Shown piece by piece: positions 23,135 to 60,452 of a stretch of DNA of 64,000 bases (positions are counted from its first letter, which is position 1; every line of letters starts with the position of its first letter). The notes below the pieces were generated by a model, which saw nothing but the letters and a program-made list of their open reading frames with translations, had not been told where the DNA came from and made no database searches. Source of the DNA: Lutibacter profundi (lineage in GTDB: Bacteria > Bacteroidota > Bacteroidia > Flavobacteriales > Flavobacteriaceae); the NCBI RefSeq assembly GCF_001543325.1, contig NZ_CP013355.1, positions 2,014,001-2,078,000 of the forward strand, given 5' to 3'. The translations under genes were made by a program, and so were the position numbers.

Positions 23135-23263
23135 CGATTTTTTATAAGATTTGTGCGACATAAAAACCGTTAGATTTTTAGGTTGTAGTAAATTATTTGT
23201 TGAATGTTTGTAGGTTCGTTATTTAGTTTAAATGTAGACATAAATTTTATGAGGTGTTGCGTG
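23135..23263 (-). other. attC-like site of the ParDE cassette
   Basis: Right after the parE stop, the minus strand shows CACGCAAC then ACCTCATAAAATTTATG. It ends with GCACAAATCTTATAA shortly before the final G. The inner arms TCATAAAATTTATG and CACAAATCTTATAA pair over 14 positions, with the imperfect pairs becoming T-G wobbles on the other strand. The middle is a variable AT-rich loop. This matches the architecture of integron attC sites, which work as a folded single strand. Confidence 0.65.
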
Positions 23264-23271
23264 TAGTTTTT

Positions 23272-23574
23272 TTAATCTAGTCGTTCTTTTATATCCATTC
23301 TTTGATGCAAAATTCTTATTACTTCCACAATGTCGTTTTCTATTTTTCTATAAAAAATCAAATGTGATTTTATTTTAGTCACTCTATAATTTTTTCGTGT
23401 TTGCTCTGCTGATTTTCCAGTCAAAAATTTGTCAGAAATAAACTCAATTTCTCCAATTATTAAGTCGTAATATCTATCAGCTTGTTCTTTAGACCATTTA
23501 TTTAATGTATAAATCCAAATGGCATTTAAGTCTTTAATCGCCTGTTCACTTATGCGATATTTGTTTTTATTCAT
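23272..23574 (-). CDS. parE: ParE-family toxin of type II toxin-antitoxin system
   Basis: The 100-residue protein has the RelE/ParE fold pattern: YRISEQAIKDLNAIWIYTLNKWSKEQADRYYDLI at the N-terminus, then GKSAEQTRKNYRVTKIKSHLIFYRK and VEVIRILHQRMD at the end. ParE toxins usually inhibit DNA gyrase. It overlaps parD by four bases (ATGA). It is cargo of the cassette 23135-23880; toxin-antitoxin pairs are common cassette cargo because they stabilise arrays. Confidence 0.92.
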   Translation of the reverse strand: MNKNKYRISEQAIKDLNAIWIYTLNKWSKEQADRYYDLIIGEIEFISDKFLTGKSAEQTRKNYRVTKIKSHLIFYRKIENDIVEVIRILHQRMDIKERLD

Positions 23575-23813
23575 AAATATTGTCGGTGTAATTCTTTCAA
23601 ATTTTCTTTGGGGTTGAAATTTTCAATAAATCCACTTTTTTCCCCTATTTTCAAAGCTTTAATTAGTTCTTTTTCCTTAGTCTCTTCTCTTTCAAGAAGT
23701 CTCAAAGCAGAGCGAATAACTTCGCTTACAGAGCCATATTTTCCAGATTTAACCTCATTTTGAATAAATTCCTCGAAATGATTACCGATTGATATTGATG
23801 TGTTTTTTCCCAT
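23571..23813 (-). CDS. parD: ParD-family antitoxin
   Basis: The 80-residue protein starts with a ribbon-helix-helix domain (TSISIGNHFEEFIQNEVKSGKYGSVSEVIRSALRLLEREE) typical of CopG/ParD antitoxins. A C-terminal segment wraps the toxin (GEKSGFIENFNPKENLKELH). It should bind ParE and repress its own promoter. It is the first gene in the cassette, starting about 67 bases inside the cassette's left end. Confidence 0.93.
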   Translation of the reverse strand: MGKNTSISIGNHFEEFIQNEVKSGKYGSVSEVIRSALRLLEREETKEKELIKALKIGEKSGFIENFNPKENLKELHRQYL

Positions 23814-24181
23814 TTTAAATAAATTTTACTCAAATATACCAAATCTTGGTAACACAAAAAAATTTTCAAATTACACACAACAGGTGATATAATTCCGTTT
23901 AACCCAAATAAACCAATGTGTCATTAGGTTTGGAAAACTTGCATTAAATTTGAGGACTATGATTATCGAGAGGTATTTTGTTATAAAATAGGAAAAAGGC
24001 CTACTAGTAAAACTAGTATGAAAAACCCAATTTTGTAGAGTGTATGGTAACATTTTCAATGAATAAACCGTCTTTATTAGGCAATATACTTTTCCATTAA
24101 TTAAATTCTAGCACTTATAATTGCTTAAAATAGCAATAATACGTCACTTAACTACCTTAAAAAGTACCCGTTTAAGGTGTT

Positions 24182-54785: not shown

Positions 54786-55068
54786 GGATTTAAATTTAAA
54801 TAACGGCTGAAATCAATACTAAAATACGTTCCTTATAAGGCTAAGTCTAAAAAAGGTTTAATACCATAAGGTTCGAAGGAGTATTAAAACTAGGTTGTTT
54901 ATACTTCGACAGAAACAAAAACAGAAAAATTGCATTACAACACTAAAAAATTAACACTAACAAATAGTAAGCATTTACCGTACATATTTTATGGTTTTAC
55001 CCTACCACAAAGTGAGATATTTTAAGTATTCTTGAAAATTAAAAATAAACACTTAAATTTAAACTTTT

Positions 55069-55378
55069 ATGAAAAGAAAAGAAAAGAAAAGAAAAGAAAC
55101 AACAAACTTTTAAAAAGGTAATATTCCTACTTGGAATATCCCTACTGCTATGGAATTGTAACAAAGAAGAAATAGGATATTTAGAGAATAGCGAAGCTAA
55201 AATAAGGCATATCTCTTATAGCGATTTTAAGGCTAAGGATAATTTTTCGCTATTAATTAACAAAATAGAACACAAATACTTTGATAGGTTAAAAGAAGCA
55301 GAAAAAAATAAATTTCAAGGAAAAACTGTTTATTCTACTAACAGTACTTTTTATATCCAAACCGATTTAATATATTGA
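55069..55378 (+). pseudogene. effector copy 1, N-terminal part, phase-OFF
   Basis: ATG 55069 is followed by five GAAAA units and runs out of frame into a stop after 14 codons. The lipoprotein frame (KKVIFLLGISLLLWNC then NKEE) has no start here, because a TGA precedes it at 55070. The C-x-K-(D/E)2 pattern after the cysteine fits a flavobacterial surface-lipoprotein signal. The frame ends at TGA 55376, one base out of register with the effector body that continues from 55371. As read, this copy cannot make a full protein. Confidence 0.7.
55071..55095 (+). repeat. (GAAAA)5 pentanucleotide tract, copy 1
   Basis: Five perfect GAAAA units overlap the start codon's G and are followed by GAAAC. With five units neither the ATG at 55069 nor the upstream TTG at 55032 is in frame with the signal peptide. 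Confidence 0.9.
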
Positions 55379-56801
55379 AACCATTAAAGACGCTATTACG
55401 AATTATACATTTAAAATTGAAAGACCTCAAATAGAGAATATTAAAACAGAAAATTTAATTGTTTCTTTAAATAACAATACAAATGAAATTAAGTTATATC
55501 TTCTTGAAATGAATGAAAGTGATATTCAAAATGATATAAAGTTTTATCCATTAGATATAAACACAATAGACAGTGATGCTCTTTTTTCAAATAAAACAGC
55601 AATGATTAATGGAGTAGCTGTAACAGTACCTGATTGTACAACTATTTATTATCTCCCTTGTAATGGAATTCAAAATGCAGATGGTCACGCAGGAACTACC
55701 AACTGTGATGGTAGCACTACTATTTTAGATTTCTCTAATTGCGGTACAGGTTACGATGATGATGCTTCATCTTATGGCGGCGGAGGAATAGGAGCTCCTA
55801 ACCCTACAGATAACTCTTCAACAAGTGGTGGAGGAACAGGAAGTACTACCAACACATCTAATAACAATGAACTTATTGAAGGAGCTATTGGTATTATAAG
55901 GTATAATACTACTGCAGCAAGTGCATTAAAAAACAACCTCCTATTAACTTCTAATCAAATAGCTTGGATAGGAGATTCTAAAAATAATACCGAAGTTACC
56001 CTTATTTTTAACTTCTTAGAAAAAAATAAAATTGGTGAGGATTATACCTCTGAAGCTAAAAATTTTGCTAAACTTGCTGTTGAAGCTTATGATAATGGTG
56101 GTGATGTGGATTGGGTGGATATGATTATTAATAATCTTTCTCCTAAAGCTGATTGTGTGTATCAAAAGTTAAAAAGTAATAGTACAGGTTTCAAAAATGC
56201 AATTAAGAAGTTTGATGGAGAATTTCCTGTAAGTCATTTAAATTTTATAATGGAAGATTTAGGTAATACAAGAGCGCAAACTCAAGCTCCTGACAATTAT
56301 ATTAATACTACTTCTGCTGATTATATCATTACAATTGCTCTAAATAATAATTCAAATATTCATGGTGTAAAATATAGACCAAATCTTATGACAGCCAAAA
56401 CAATTGTTCATGAGGTTATACACGCTGAAATGTATAGGAAATTATTGTCTTTAGCTAATCAGGGACATTTGAGTTTTACTGGTTGGACAATTCAACAGCA
56501 AAAAGATTATATGATAAGTATTAAAAATAATTTTCCTGGAATTTATGACTACTATAGAAGGTATAAAAATTGGCAGCATCAACAGATGGCTACACATTAT
56601 AGACAAACAATTGCTAACATTTTAAAAGAGTTTGATAATTCACTAAATACTGACCAGTTTTACATGGATTTAGCTTGGGAAGGATTGGATAAGACAAGTA
56701 TAGTAGGATGGCAAGATGGTGTTTCAGAAAATGATAAAATTAGAATACTAAAAGTAATTTCAGATTACATAAATATAAATAAAAATGAAAATTGTCAATA
56801 A
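55371..56801 (+). CDS. effector copy 1 body with HEVIH metallopeptidase-like domain
   Basis: The frame opens right after a TAA at 55368-55370 and the first ATG is at 55509 (430 residues from there). A conserved N-domain (DINTIDSDALFSNK, CNGIQNADGHAGTTNC) leads to a Gly/Ser/Asn linker, then GAIGIIRYNTTAASALKNN. The variable C-terminal region contains TAKTIVHEVIHAEM, the HExxH zinc-protease motif, then NWQHQQMATHYRQTI and LAWEGLDKTS, ending NENCQ. I infer a secreted or surface zinc metallopeptidase toxin or effector. The following small gene overlaps its end by 17 bases, as immunity genes often do. Confidence 0.7.
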   Translation, partial: YIETIKDAITNYTFKIERPQIENIKTENLIVSLNNNTNEIKLYLLEMNESDIQNDIKFYPLDINTIDSDALFSNKTAMINGVAVTVPDCTTIYYLPCNGIQNADGHAGTTNCDGSTTILDFSNCGTGYDDDASSYGGGGIGAPNPTDNSSTSGGGTGSTTNTSNNNELIEGAIGIIRYNTTAASALKNNLLLTSNQIAWIGDSKNNTEVTLIFNFLEKNKIGEDYTSEAKNFAKLAVEAYDNGGDVDWVDMIINNLSPKADCVYQKLKSNSTGFKNAIKKFDGEFPVSHLNFIMEDLGNTRAQTQAPDNYINTTSADYIITIALNNNSNIHGVKYRPNLMTAKTIVHEVIHAEMYRKLLSLANQGHLSFTGWTIQQQKDYMISIKNNFPGIYDYYRRYKNWQHQQMATHYRQTIANILKEFDNSLNTDQFYMDLAWEGLDKTSIVGWQDGVSENDKIRILKVISDYININKNENCQ

Positions 56802-57261
56802 TATAAAATATAAAATATTAATGCTTTTCTTAATCAGTACTATAAATTGTATTTCTCAATCTAAAAAAGAAACAGTTTACATACTATTCGATGGAAACAG
56901 TAAGGAGAAATGTAGATTAGAAGTAGAATATTCATCGGACAATGATGGTAGACTTGATGGTTATCAAACAGTAAATAAGTATCGAAAAAAATATAAGAAT
57001 AATAGAATTATATTCGAAATTTATAATGAAAATTTTGTTTTTGATAAACAAAAATTTGAACCGGATACATGTAGCGTTCAAAATTTTAATAAAATAAAAC
57101 TTGAGACAATCGAAAGTATTAACAAAAAAGTAAAAGATTCAGATTTAGGCTATCTTTTTAAGAATTCTCTTTTTAATAAAATTTATCTTGTCGAGAAAAT
57201 ATCTGAAACTAGAATAATTAAATATGAAGTTTATTGGGCTGGAGAATTGACTTCTGAATAA
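56785..57261 (+). CDS. exported immunity-like protein 1
   Basis: The 158-residue protein has a signal peptide (about 1-25) and a small alpha/beta domain with ETVYILFDGNSKEKC and a C-terminal KIYLVEKISETRIIKYEV. The last motif recurs in the proteins at 60452 and 61542, so they form a family. It overlaps the metallopeptidase-like effector gene by 17 bases, which suggests translational coupling. An immunity role in the periplasm or outer membrane is inferred, not shown. Confidence 0.6.
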   Translation: MKIVNNIKYKILMLFLISTINCISQSKKETVYILFDGNSKEKCRLEVEYSSDNDGRLDGYQTVNKYRKKYKNNRIIFEIYNENFVFDKQKFEPDTCSVQNFNKIKLETIESINKKVKDSDLGYLFKNSLFNKIYLVEKISETRIIKYEVYWAGELTSE

Positions 57262-57274
57262 TAAAGTTGAGTAG

Positions 57275-57485
57275 GTAAAGGTGGAAATCCAACACAAATA
57301 TATGACTGATTACTATAGAATTTCGATTGAAGAAGGTTTAAGGGAATCCTCCACGTGGAAAGGTTGTTCCACATATTCACCTCCAAGTCTTTAATTCAAA
57401 TTGGTCTCAAAGTTTGGATCCAGCAAATTATTTACAAACAAAGTTCGATTCTAACTACAACCCAATATCTAATAATTGTCAATAA
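57275..57485 (+). pseudogene. detached effector tails (metallopeptidase tail fused to PHIH tail)
   Basis: A first piece, read from 57275, contains IQHKYMTDYYRISIEEGLRE and aligns with WQHQQMATHYRQTIANILKE of the effector at 55371. From 57342 another frame gives GNPPRGKVVPHIHLQVFNSN, then DPANYLQTKFD and a closing ISNNCQ. Its PHIH motif and the CQ ending shared with other effectors suggest a second toxin tail. No start codon or N-terminal domain is present, so it is a displaced cassette end. Confidence 0.55.
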
Positions 57486-57496
57486 AAATTTATATT

Positions 57497-57963
57497 ATGA
57501 AAAAATAATTTTAATATTTAGCATATTAATAGTGAGTTTTACCTGTAAAGCACAGGATAATACCATAAATTATAATGAATTAACTATAAATGACATTAAT
57601 TTTCTAGGGAATAATGTTAGTTTAGTAATTCAACATCTAGGTCAACCAAATACTATTGAAGAGTATTACTTTGAAATGCAAGATGTAATGTCACAAAAAT
57701 ATAAATATAATGACATTATATTTACAGTAATAAACAATAGAACTTATTCATTTGAAATTATAGGGAGTAATTATACTTTTACAAGTAATAATATAAATGT
57801 GGGAGATAATATTAACAAGTTACAACCCATCTATCCATTAAGTTTTACAAGTAAGAGTTCAGATGCATTATCTTTAGATTTTGTCGATATGGATAGGTTC
57901 ATTATAATTTCTTTTAATTCTATAAATAACATAATTGATAAAATAGAAACATATAGTTATTAA
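57497..57963 (+). pseudogene. exported immunity-like protein 2, frameshifted in its signal peptide
   Basis: ATG 57497 is followed by six A and then TAA. One more A would give MKKIILIFSILIVSFTCKAQ, a good signal peptide, continuing in the open frame to 57963 (YNELTINDINFLGNN...IDKIETYSY). The mature domain of about 135 residues is not recognised. Its place right after the PHIH tail suggests it was that toxin's immunity protein. The single-base defect could be real or a homopolymer reading error. Confidence 0.5.
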
Positions 57964-57999
57964 TAATACAAAAACCACAACCACATATATAAAAAACAG

Positions 58000-58035
58000 C
58001 AGAAAAGTGTCATACCAAAACCTGATACTTTTCTG
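58000..58035 (+). terminator. hairpin/terminator before 5' module copy 2
   Basis: CAGAAAAGTGTC and GATACTTTTCTG form a 12-base stem. The same structure, with small base changes that keep pairing by wobble, occurs at 62935-62970 before copy 3. Confidence 0.6.
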
Positions 58036-58226
58036 TTAACTTTATAAACTAGACGAAAAAATCACAACGAATTAACCTGCTACTGTTCATTTACTCACCG
58101 TTTTGGTCTATACTTCGACAGAAACAAAAACAGAAAAATTGCATTACAACACTAACAAATAGTAAGCATTTACCATACATATTTTACGGTTTTACCCTAC
58201 AACAAAATGAAATATTTTAAGTATTC

Positions 58227-58568
58227 TTGAAAATTAAAAATAAACACTTAAATTTAAACTTTTATGAAAAGAAAAGAAAAGAAAAGAAACAACAAACTTT
58301 TAAAAAGGTAATATTCCTACTTGGAATATCCCTACTGCTATGGAATTGTAACAAAGAAGAAATAGGATATTTAGAGAATAGCGAAGCTAAAATAAGGCAT
58401 ATCTCTTATAGCGATTTTAAGGCTAAGGATAATTTTTCGCTATTAATTAACAAAGTAGAACACAAATACTTTGACAGGTTAAAAGAAGTAGAAAAAAATA
58501 AATTTCAAGGAAAAACTGTTTATTCTACTAACAGTACTTTTTATATCCAAACCGATTTAATATATTGA
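58227..58568 (+). CDS. effector copy 2, N-terminal part (TTG frame open with 4 repeat units)
   Basis: With four GAAAA units the upstream TTG 58227 is in frame with the lipoprotein signal peptide (KKVIFLLGISLLLWNC, then NKEE), while the ATG at 58264 is out of frame and stops after 15 codons. From the TTG the signal has a very long basic n-region. The product would be 113 residues because of the same TGA frameshift as in copy 1 (58566-58568). Loss of one repeat unit would put the ATG in frame instead. Confidence 0.6.
   Translation: MKIKNKHLNLNFYEKKRKEKKQQTFKKVIFLLGISLLLWNCNKEEIGYLENSEAKIRHISYSDFKAKDNFSLLINKVEHKYFDRLKEVEKNKFQGKTVYSTNSTFYIQTDLIY
58266..58285 (+). repeat. (GAAAA)4 pentanucleotide tract, copy 2
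   Basis: Four perfect units followed by GAAAC. The copy-number difference from copy 1 (five units) within one genome is direct evidence that the tract changes length. Confidence 0.9.
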
Positions 58569-58757
58569 AACCATTAAAGACGCTATTACGAATTATACAT
58601 TTAAAATAGAAAGACCTCAAATAGAGAATATTAAAACAGAAAATTTAATTGTTTCTTTAAATAACAATACAAATGAAATTAAGTTATATCTTCTTGAAAT
58701 GAATGAAAGTGATATTCAAAATGATATAAAGTTTTATCCATTAGTTACCATATATAT

Positions 58758-59585
58758 ATGAAAAAAATTTTGCTACTTATACTTGCCCTTATGTTAATTA
58801 AATGTTCAAATCTAAAGTATTTGGATGCTTATAATGGGTTGAAAGGGAAACCAAAAATGATAGAATCAACAACTTACAAAATTAATTTTATTGACAGTTT
58901 AGAAAATGAAATAGTTGCTTTCAAAATAATGTTTCATTTTGATTCAAAAGGGCGAATTCTAAAATGCCCACATTTAAATAAAGATGGGACAATAGGCTAT
59001 GGTGAAACAAAGTATATTTATGACAAAAAAGGTAATATGATTGAATATATAAGATATGGTAAAGATAGTTTTGTAAATATTCAAAATAAATATGAATATA
59101 ATAAGTATGGAAAACTATTAAAGAGAGAATCTTATTTTAATGGAAACATAAAAGCTATAACTAAATATAATTATGATATAAATAATAGAGAAGCAAGGAT
59201 AATAATGAGAAATAGTGATGGCTCTTTTAGAGATAATGCACTAGAGAAATATGATAGAAACTGGAATGATACTGAGTTAATTAGTTATGATAGTTTAGGA
59301 AATCAAAAATCTAGAATTGAATTTGAATATGACAAAAGAGGGAATAAATATTTATATAAATATTACAGTTCAAAAAACGAATTATATAAAATTTCCAAAA
59401 CAATATTTAACGAATATAATGATCCTATTTGGGCAAGTAGTATTCAATTTTCAAGTAAAGATACTATAAAAGGAAAGGTAACTGAATTCAAATATTTGTA
59501 CGATACTAAAAATAATCCAATTGAAGAAAAATCAATTGTTAATGGAAAAACAGTTTGGATTACTAGAAATAATATTATGTATTAA
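58758..59585 (+). CDS. cassette-borne lipoprotein with YD/RHS-like repeats
   Basis: The 275-residue protein has a lipoprotein signal (LILALMLIKC, Cys16). It is built of repeated short beta hairpins with FHFDSKGRILK, YIYDKKGNMIEY, YEYNKYGKLLKR, FEYDKRGNKY and YLYDTKNNPIEE, the Y-x-Y-D-x-x-G-N pattern of RHS/YD repeats. It is the sole cargo of the cassette and starts 13 bases from its left end, as integron cassettes do. The function may be surface binding or toxin-like; it is unknown. Confidence 0.8.
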   Translation: MKKILLLILALMLIKCSNLKYLDAYNGLKGKPKMIESTTYKINFIDSLENEIVAFKIMFHFDSKGRILKCPHLNKDGTIGYGETKYIYDKKGNMIEYIRYGKDSFVNIQNKYEYNKYGKLLKRESYFNGNIKAITKYNYDINNREARIIMRNSDGSFRDNALEKYDRNWNDTELISYDSLGNQKSRIEFEYDKRGNKYLYKYYSSKNELYKISKTIFNEYNDPIWASSIQFSSKDTIKGKVTEFKYLYDTKNNPIEEKSIVNGKTVWITRNNIMY

Positions 59586-59591
59586 ATACAT

Positions 59592-59718
59592 ATGGTAACA
59601 CCTCATAAAATTTATGCTTACATTTAAACTAAATAACAAACTGACAAACATTCAACTAACGATTTGCTACAACCGAAAAATCTCCGATTTTCCAGTCGCA
59701 CAAATCTTATAAAAGCCG
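59592..59718 (+). other. attC-like site of the second cassette
   Basis: ATGGTAAC, then ACC, then TCATAAAATTTATG form the left half; CACAAATCTTATAA, AAGCC and G form the right half, with the core completed by TTACCAT at 58745-58751. The central part differs from that of the ParDE cassette, but the long arms are nearly identical. Confidence 0.65.
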
Positions 59719-60452
59719 ATATAAACACAATAGACAGTGAAGCTCTTTTTTCAAATAAAACAGCAATGATTAATGGAGTAGCTGTAACAGTACCTGATTG
59801 TACAACTATTTATTATCTCCCTTGTAATGGAATTCAAAATGCAGATGGTCACGCAGGAACTACCAACTGTGATGGTAGCACTACTATTTTAGATTTCTCT
59901 AATTGCGGTACAGGTTACGATGATGATGCTTCATCTTATGGCGGAGGAGGAATAGGAGCTCCTAACCCTACAGATAACTCTTCAACAAGTGGTGGAGGAA
60001 CAGGGAGTACTACCAACACATCTAATAACAATGAACTTATTGAAGGAGCTATTGGTATTATAAGGTATGATACTACTGCAGCAAGTGCATTAAAAAACAA
60101 CCTCCTTTTAAGTTCTGCTCAAATAGCTTGGATAGGAGATTCTAAAAATAATACCGAAGTTACCCTTATTTATAACTTCTTAGAAGCAAATAAAATTGGT
60201 GAGGATTATACCTCTGAAGCTAAAAATTTTGCAGAACTTGCTGTAAATGCTTATATTAATAAAGGTACTGTGGATTATGTAGATAGAATTATTCTCGATC
60301 AAACTTTTGTAAACTCAGTAGCTAAAGCGGGTTTAAATAAAACCTCATATTTTAAAAGTTTAGATTCCACAACGCAAACTAATGTTTTAAATATGCATTC
60401 CTATTTGAAAGCTAATGGAAAGAAAATAACAAACGCTAAAACTTGTCAATAA
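59719..60452 (+). CDS. effector copy 2 body, metallopeptidase core deleted
   Basis: The sequence resumes at NTIDSEALFSNK and matches copy 1 almost exactly through the linker and GAIGIIRYDTTAASALKNN to about 60290. It then lacks the HEVIH region and continues with AGLNKTSYFKSL...NAKTCQ, which aligns with the last 40 residues of copy 1 (EGLDKTSIVGW...NENCQ). The frame is open through the attC-like site from TTG 59664. It is an N-domain joined to a bare tail, probably the result of an internal deletion. Confidence 0.65.

What the first reader, a model, noticed from the sequence alone, without database searches (positions are those of the whole stretch)
59592..59718. Two attC-like sites with self-complementary but cassette-specific end boxes and no integrase nearby
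The sites at 59592-59718 and, inverted, 23135-23263 are near-identical over the long arms (ACCTCATAAAATTTATG... and ...GCACAAATCTTATAA). Their terminal boxes differ (ATGGTAAC versus CACGCAAC), yet each pairs with its own cassette start (GTTACCAT, GTTGTGTG). That covariation is the hallmark of integron attC sites, and mismatches in the inner arm become T-G wobbles on the opposite strand, the strand integron integrases use. Both targets have a G at the cut (G-AT and G-TT). Single cassettes at scattered secondary sites, far from any integron platform, would be an unusual, dispersed integron ecology in Flavobacteriia.
Basis: partly seen in the sequence, partly recalled or inferred. Interest (0 to 1): 0.92.

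Follow-up and report, generated by a model that had tools for sequence, protein, structure and literature searches.

The report
Hidden integron-like system across Bacteroidia
The two odd sites belong to single gene cassettes that match a 100-kb gene-collecting array elsewhere in the same chromosome, apparently run by a recombinase related to integron integrases but lacking the part thought to be essential for them, and the same arrangement turns up in many related bacteria.

Summary
The sites end single cassettes (window 58744-59717 +; 23136-23881 -). The same chromosome holds 68 related sites in one orientation at 610-707 kb, directly after a 397-aa tyrosine recombinase and an attI-like site. 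Cassette ends pair with the cassette's own start, and sites fold better on the bottom strand (192 of 197), as in integrons. An uninterrupted paralogue in the window shows the empty target of cassette 1. The recombinase is not IntI by definition: most of the IntI-specific stretch is missing and it scores below the IntI cut-off; yet it groups with IntI apart from XerA/XerD. Most stems (164 of 197) need no bulged base, and show G-T wobbles at fixed positions. Relatives occur in 194 of 395 genomes of the class; cassettes follow them in 31 of 35, 18 of 20 and 25 of 34 loci, against 2 of 20 XerD controls. Best reading: an integron-type system, sister to classical integrons, without the I2 domain or extrahelical bases. 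Recombination was not tested. Ten library searches listed no description.

The parts
58744..59717 (+). Cassette 1 (974 bp): start box, 275-aa gene, end box and attC-like site
   Evidence: start GTTACCATATATAT pairs with the end box (score 15.6); joined flanks match the uninterrupted paralogue with no gap at the insertion point.
58744..58757 (+). Cassette 1 start box (GTTACCATATATAT)
58758..59585 (+). Cassette 1 gene, 275 aa, no Pfam family at E 0.001
59586..59599 (+). Cassette 1 end box (ATACATATGGTAAC), complementary to its own start
59600..59717 (+). Body of the attC-like site: spacer, inner stem 5' arm from 59603, variable middle, inner stem 3' arm 59698-59712, spacer AAGCC
   Evidence: model R1 hit at 59597-59720, bottom strand, E 2.9e-6
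59718..59720 (+). Target triplet GAT at the insertion point
   Evidence: the paralogue reads TCCATTAGATATAAAC
58227..58743 (+). Sequence upstream of the insertion, matching the paralogue
   Evidence: 98% identical
59718..60452 (+). Downstream part of the interrupted reading frame
   Evidence: 95% identical to the paralogue over 576 bp
55007..56129 (+). Uninterrupted paralogous stretch: natural empty site
23136..23881 (-). Cassette 2 (746 bp), ParD/ParE toxin-antitoxin pair plus a decayed attC-like site
23868..23881 (-). Cassette 2 start box (GTTGTGTGTAATTT)
23571..23813 (-). ParD-like antitoxin gene
   Evidence: PF03693, 9.2e-27
23272..23574 (-). ParE-like toxin gene
   Evidence: PF05016, 1.2e-17
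23256..23269 (-). Cassette 2 end box (AAACTACACGCAAC)
23136..23255 (-). Body of the second attC-like site, decayed
   Evidence: not found by model R1 at E 0.01

Best explanation
The sites are the 3' recombination sites of gene cassettes of an integron-type system that has its own recombinase. SHOWN by sequence: a recombinase gene, then a conserved attI-like site (TATCC-type motif about 50 bp before the junction; ATATAACNA^GTT), then tens of head-to-tail cassettes. A typical cassette starts GTTR, ends with the reverse complement of its first 10-14 bases, and is followed by a 116-122 bp (sometimes about 180 bp) site with an inner stem of about 16 bp. Covariation and the bias of wobbles show that the bottom strand is the one kept foldable. 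INFERRED: the recombinase binds the folded bottom strand of a cassette circle and recombines it into attI next to the G of GTT. Cassettes are excised and reinserted and now and then land at GWT-like secondary targets; the two window cassettes are such landings. Strand choice is set by G-T wobbles at fixed stem positions rather than by bulged bases, and arm contacts at attI may come from the extra N-terminal domain.
For: Own genome: 68 model-R1 sites, one strand, 610-707 kb (the model includes array sites); 33 bp between the recombinase stop and the first cassette start. Box pairs over score 12: 36 of 51 parsed cassettes, 0-1 in five shuffles. Relatives: 152 such pairs in 311 kb after set-A recombinases (31 of 35 usable loci), 107 in 193 kb after set B (18 of 20), 2 in 234 kb after XerD genes of 20 genomes of the same sets (2 of 20 loci); 25 of 34 usable class-wide loci. 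attI-like motif within 300 bp of the stop in 35 of 40 set-A loci, chance rate 0.025; TATCC-type motif at -53 to -41 in 30 of 36 sites, background 1.4%, including 4 of the 5 that lie over 100 bp past the stop. Folding: inner stem in 176 of 210 sites, 1 of 210 after shuffling; A.C 405 against G.T 30; bottom strand more stable in 192 of 197; covariation 0.500 against 0.123 shuffled, slides at most 0.121. Insertion: paralogue as empty site. R235, K260, H324, R327, H350 and Y359 invariant in 51 recombinases (catalytic roles recalled). Tree: family plus IntI against XerA and XerD rows, 100/98. Genome-level link: recombinase in 36 of 40 site-rich, 7 of 20 site-poor and 1 of 20 site-free genomes. 40 of 43 longest cassette frames of 60 aa or more point with the cassette.
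Against: No reaction, circle or excision was observed. Four of 40 site-rich genomes had no recombinase at the threshold used. Four of 35 set-A, 2 of 20 set-B and 9 of 34 class-wide loci showed no pair over 12; five set-A loci lack the attI motif. In the own array 15 of 51 parsed cassettes score 12 or less. Model R1 also matches 59 genomes of other classes of the phylum, many with a single match, so the sites are not confined to the class. The wobble at box position 11 was favoured by my score, and the 70 sites were chosen for pairing. Site-free genomes are small (17 of the 20 tested are 1.9 Mb or less), which confounds the link. Tree sampling of other tyrosine recombinases is thin, and whether the family is one clade or lies around IntI is open (69/79; p-AU 0.374).
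Confidence: 0.87

Rival explanations
1. Ordinary integrons: the recombinase is simply a divergent IntI and the sites are plain attC.
For: Same layout; the family groups with IntI in the tree; NCBIfam's nearest model is titled 'site-specific tyrosine recombinase/integron integrase'; a 2021 classification notes that the insertion is not fully conserved in its integron-like subgroup (PMC8138268, section 7 read).
Against: 63 residues of IntI 2a3v (180-242) stand unaligned against 20 positions of the family profile; the best IntI-model E-value among 51 members, 1.3e-64, implies that none reaches the cut-off (inferred from the own protein's 198.5 bits); extra N-terminal domain; no bulge needed in the 16-bp stem of 164 of 197 sites; core is GTTR but not GTTRRRY; model R1 hits only 1 of 9 loci around true IntI genes of the phylum.
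Confidence: 0.08
2. MITE-like transposable units with variable terminal inverted repeats, moved by a transposase.
For: Each unit has complementary ends and some are dispersed.
Against: Ends differ from cassette to cassette but covary; no target duplication at the one insertion shown, beyond a shared G; head-to-tail arrays starting at a fixed point after the recombinase.
Confidence: 0.02
3. RNA elements (terminators or attenuators) at the ends of genes.
For: Hairpins lie 3' of genes.
Against: The sense RNA equals the top strand, where the mismatches are A.C; the bottom strand folds better in 192 of 197 sites (DNA energies). Rfam at gathering level finds only a tRNA in the window.
Confidence: 0.01
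4. Relics: the arrays are remnants, handled if at all by XerC/D or a foreign IntI in trans.
For: Site 2 is decayed; some site-rich genomes lack a recombinase hit; some recombinase frames carry stops (3 of 60 fetched A/B loci set aside for this).
Against: Catalytic residues are invariant in the 51 aligned recombinases; recombinase and array lie side by side in many genera; identical or near-identical cassette copies lie apart within one array.
Confidence: 0.04

Closest known systems
Integron (IntI - attI - attC), large chromosomal form
   Same: Recombinase, adjacent attI-like site, long head-to-tail cassette array, cassette-specific end complementarity, bottom-strand folding, mostly genes in one direction.
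   Different: Recombinase lacks most of the IntI-specific stretch and has an N-terminal domain; in the loci fetched around set A and B the gene points the same way as the cassettes; stems carry fixed wobbles and usually need no bulged base; box is GTTR plus variable bases, 10-14 bp.
'Integron-like' subgroup of simple tyrosine recombinases (PMC8138268)
   Different: In the section and passages I read, no cassettes, sites or function are given for members without the insertion.
XerA / NF040815 recombinases
   Same: Best-scoring curated and solved relatives.
   Different: The two XerA rows lie on the XerD side of the tree; XerD controls have no arrays.
attG insertion of integron cassettes (Loot et al. 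2024; seen only as a reference; the paper is not held)
   Same: Single cassettes at scattered genomic targets; the GWT-like target is recalled, not read.
   Different: Here in a system without IntI.
CTXphi integration by XerCD (passages of PMC4792948)
   Same: Recombination of a folded strand by recombinases without I2, on a stem without extrahelical bases.
   Different: CTXphi borrows host XerCD; here a dedicated recombinase sits beside the array.

Membership tests
Integron | Tyrosine recombinase with the IntI-specific additional (I2) domain | tested here: not met
   2a3v residues 180-242 (63) unaligned against 20 profile positions of the 51-row family profile; IntI cut-off not reached by the own protein nor, by inference, by the others. 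Passages of PMC9668308 and PMC2426708 use the domain as a criterion.
Integron | Recombinase gene next to an attI site and cassette array | tested here: met
   (attI function inferred from conservation)
Integron | Cassette ends complementary to the cassette's own start | tested here: met
   (36 of 51 parsed own-array cassettes over score 12)
Integron | Bottom strand is the folded strand | tested here: met
   In silico only:
Integron | Extrahelical bases in the attC stem | tested here: not met
   An ungapped 16-bp inner stem fits 164 of 197 sites and no bulge after it raises pairing; wobbles sit at fixed positions instead. The other 33 sites were not analysed further, and stem position 17 is mispaired in 81 of 119 sites of the largest group, so an unpaired base at the apical end is not excluded.
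Integron | GTTRRRY core (recalled) | tested here: not met
   Position 5 is T in 88, G in 83, C in 38 and A in 1 of 210
Integron | Match to the published attC covariance model | not testable with these tools
   Model not on hand
Integron | Excision and integration by the recombinase | not testable with these tools
   Needs the bench
XerC/XerD | Falls with the chromosome-dimer recombinases | tested here: not met
   25 of 25 genomes searched have a separate XerD-type gene; the tree separates the family from XerD and XerA rows, 100/98. XerC was represented at most by one unlabelled own protein.

The most novel reading that the evidence does not exclude
A widespread, undescribed sister class of integrons, the main cassette system of the class Bacteroidia, that recombines folded single strands without the I2 domain and without extrahelical bases. 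If so, hairpin cassette recombination preceded, or does not need, the feature thought to have created integrons.
Probability: 0.6. Interest if true: 0.95.

Novelty: new variant of a known kind. Interest (0 to 1): 0.9.

Why it matters
Integron surveys use the IntI domain as a criterion (passages of PMC2426708 and PMC9668308), and one large survey reports a single complete integron within Bacteroidetes proper, in Salinibacter (passage of PMC9024848). Here a related recombinase is found in about half of the sampled genomes of the class (194 of 395), with cassettes behind most of the loci checked, and matching sites in 265 of 299 genomes of the window's family. That would be a large unseen gene-exchange system. 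PMC4792948 suggests that gaining an I2-like domain permitted recognition of single-stranded sites (passages); a sister system without I2 and, as far as tested, without extrahelical bases makes that suggestion directly testable.

Tried and rejected
Rfam scan of the window gave only a tRNA. Empty-site search for cassette 2 in 38 genomes of the genus (own included): matches covered the coding gene beyond the target, plus one 70-base stretch, not the target itself, so its empty site is not shown. The reverse-complement parse of the array scores high by symmetry and is no control. My first, looser parse also gave 30-32 'cassettes' per shuffle; stricter ones are used. Set B was fetched as a contrast but proved to have arrays too; XerD loci then served as control. 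A promoter reading of the TAnnTTT[GA] element before attI (19 of 36, background 5.6%) is left open, because its fixed distance fits a binding site as well. VIA alignment was not available. Four site-rich genomes without a recombinase hit (G019, G041, G066, G071) are unexplained, as is the 33-site remainder.

Full report
CHECK OF THE OBSERVATION. The two sites are at the stated places. Site 1 closes a 974-bp cassette (58744-59717, +) whose start GTTACCATATATAT pairs with its end box. Site 2 closes a 746-bp cassette on the - strand (23881 to 23136) with a ParD/ParE pair. Site 1 folds well only on the bottom strand (-19.8 against -9.0 kcal/mol); site 2 is decayed (-8.0 against -7.3).

THE PLATFORM. 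A DNA search of the window's own genome (one contig, 2.97 Mb, unnamed; nearest named relatives are Lutibacter) listed 40 copies, 37 of them in one direction at 610-707 kb. Directly before them lies a 397-aa tyrosine recombinase, 608003-609196, on the same strand. A covariance model (R1, built partly from array sites) finds 68 sites in that array, all on one strand, plus one at 788 kb and window site 1; window site 2 is missed. Several quite different site families share the array. A parse gives 51 cassettes, 36 with box-pair score over 12 (five block shuffles: 1, 0, 0, 1, 1); 15 score lower, and not every site is parsed. Ends less than about 1 kb apart mostly pair nearly perfectly, while longer intervals hold further, divergent sites.

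THE INSERTION. The stretch interrupted by cassette 1 has an uninterrupted paralogue 3-4 kb upstream in the window (55007-56129). The joined flanks match it at 97% over 1,123 columns; the only gap is a 5-base repeat difference far from the junction. The empty site reads TCCATTA^GATATAAAC, and no bases are duplicated beyond the shared G. So a cassette landed at a GAT, early in a reading frame. For cassette 2 no empty site could be shown. A third single cassette lies at 788 kb.

RELATIVES. Seven named loci encode a relative: four Lutibacter, two Seonamhaeicola and one weak Cyclobacteriaceae match. At E 1e-60 it is found in 130 of 299 genomes of the family. I fetched 40 loci of higher (set A) and 20 of lower similarity (set B). 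Among loci with at least 300 bp downstream, box pairs over 12 number 152 in 311 kb for A (31 of 35 loci) and 107 in 193 kb for B (18 of 20), against 2 in 234 kb (2 of 20) downstream of XerD in 20 genomes of these sets; over 15 the numbers are 102, 68 and 0. Five A loci were too short. Class-wide, 40 loci were fetched: 6 were too short, and 25 of the other 34 have such pairs. The A1 profile matches 194 of 395 genomes of the class at 1e-80; some matches lack the N-terminal part. True IntI over the cut-off occurs in 105 of 395 phylum genomes; 1 of these is listed as same class and 0 as same family. How many same-class genomes were in that draw was not printed. The tools give no class name; Bacteroidia is inferred from the named relatives.

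ATTI. In 35 of 40 set-A loci TATAACNNG[TA] lies within 300 bp of the stop; the chance rate is 0.025. With the own locus, 36 aligned sites share ATATAACNA^GTT, and 30 of 36 carry a TATCC-type motif at -53 to -41 (background 1.4%), as do 4 of the 5 sites more than 100 bp beyond the stop. Set B has other sequences there (0 of 20 with the A motif).

THE SITE. From 57 loci I took 236 sites, 210 distinct. An inner stem scoring at least 9 is present in 176 of 210, and in 1 of 210 shuffled spans. Stem mismatches are 405 A.C (a T.G wobble on the bottom strand) against 30 G.T; 181 sites lean one way and 4 the other. In the outer box the A.C at position 11 is in all 210, but my score favoured it. In the largest group of 119 sites, wobbles are fixed at stem positions 7 (92 of 119) and 12 (98 of 119), and position 17 is mispaired in 81. 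An ungapped 16-bp stem fits 164 of 197 sites. The bottom strand is more stable in 192 of 197, the top in 5. On 70 sites chosen for inner pairing, 97.4% of cells pair, covariation is 0.500 against 0.123 shuffled (0 of 500 as high), and slid versions reach at most 0.121; two other measures are less striking (pairs with changes on both sides: 80 of 500 shuffles as high; further pair types: 7 of 500).

LINK AT GENOME LEVEL. R1 matches 265 of 299 family genomes, with at most 11 candidates scored per genome. I then took 20 of the 34 genomes without a match (those listed), 20 of those with 1-2 matches and 40 of those with 11: the recombinase (1e-80) is in 1, 7 and 36 of them. Of the 20 without sites, 17 are 1.9 Mb or smaller, which confounds. 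In a phylum-wide draw R1 matches 90 of 247 genomes, 59 of them of other classes and often with one or two matches. In 9 loci around true IntI genes R1 hits only one. In one other-class genome that also has IntI, an R1 array sits near a 306-aa recombinase closer to this family (203 bits) than to IntI (156). XerD control loci gave 1 R1 hit in 262 kb.

THE RECOMBINASE. Its best curated models are XerA-type (212.5 bits, cut-off 220) and IntI (198.5, cut-off 265). The IntI structure 2a3v aligns up to residue 179 and again from 243; the 63 residues between stand against 20 positions of the family profile. R235, K260, H324, R327, H350 and Y359 are invariant in 51 sequences. The model (pLDDT 88, pTM 0.68) shows an extra N-terminal alpha/beta domain of about 80 residues; the nearest solved folds are XerA, then IntI4. 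In trees of 52 and 41 rows the family and IntI lie together against the Xer rows (100/99 and 100/98); whether IntI is inside or beside the family is not resolved.

CARGO. Of 43 parsed cassettes whose longest frame is at least 60 aa, 40 have it in cassette direction. Of 34 cassette proteins scanned, matches include a type IIG restriction enzyme, ParE and YoeB-like toxins and a DndB-like protein; the count without any family was not printed. Identical cassettes occur at separate places in one array, and similar ones (83-93%) in different genomes.

WHAT IS KNOWN. PMC9024848 (passages) reports one complete integron in Bacteroidetes proper, Salinibacter, besides Chlorobi and Ignavibacteriae. PMC8138268 (section 7 and passages) notes an insertion not fully conserved in its integron-like subgroup. 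PMC4792948 (passages) says that I2 accommodates extrahelical bases, had not been identified elsewhere, and that its gain may have permitted single-strand sites. PMC9668308 and PMC2426708 (passages) use the domain as a criterion. PMC8618304 (passages) lists Bacteroidota among phyla with integrons. Ten library searches listed no paper whose title or abstract start describes this system; I did not read all listed papers, and subscription papers and preprints are not held, so it may be in print elsewhere.

VERDICT. An integron-type cassette system that fails defining tests of integrons (IntI domain; extrahelical bases, as far as tested) and meets the architectural ones. It works like an integron, in my reading; it is not a member as integrons are now defined.

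Noticed in passing
L032:9150-9232 (own recombinase 3' end) and set-A loci: The conserved C-terminal residues such as LSGN/LSRN of many recombinases are encoded by the TATCCGG motif of the attI-like site, so site and gene end overlap; in 4 of 5 loci where attI lies over 100 bp away the motif is found with attI.
   Followed up: partly
L033:5933-7111, L033:14457-15635, L036:3371-4549, L036:16424-17602: Transposase genes (393-aa frames; one scanned: rve and HTH domains, weak IS481 zipper match) sit inside array cassettes; the last three lie in stretches over 99% identical.
   Followed up: no
window 55007-60452: The block hit by cassette 1 is a recent 97% duplication; weaker relatives of the protein lie in the array at 651 and 674 kb.
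   Followed up: partly
L242:17857-18774: A 306-aa family-type recombinase transcribed away from an R1-type array, in a genome that also carries a true IntI.
   Followed up: partly
L109, L110, L113, L116, L119: Contigs end 36-206 bases after the recombinase, as expected if repeated sites break assemblies; this may be one reason the arrays were overlooked.
   Followed up: no
Sites: Site lengths fall into two main groups, about 110-129 bp and about 170-189 bp.
   Followed up: no
G157, G113 and G131: Sites lie at several separate places per chromosome, so dispersed cassettes may be common in this family.
   Followed up: no
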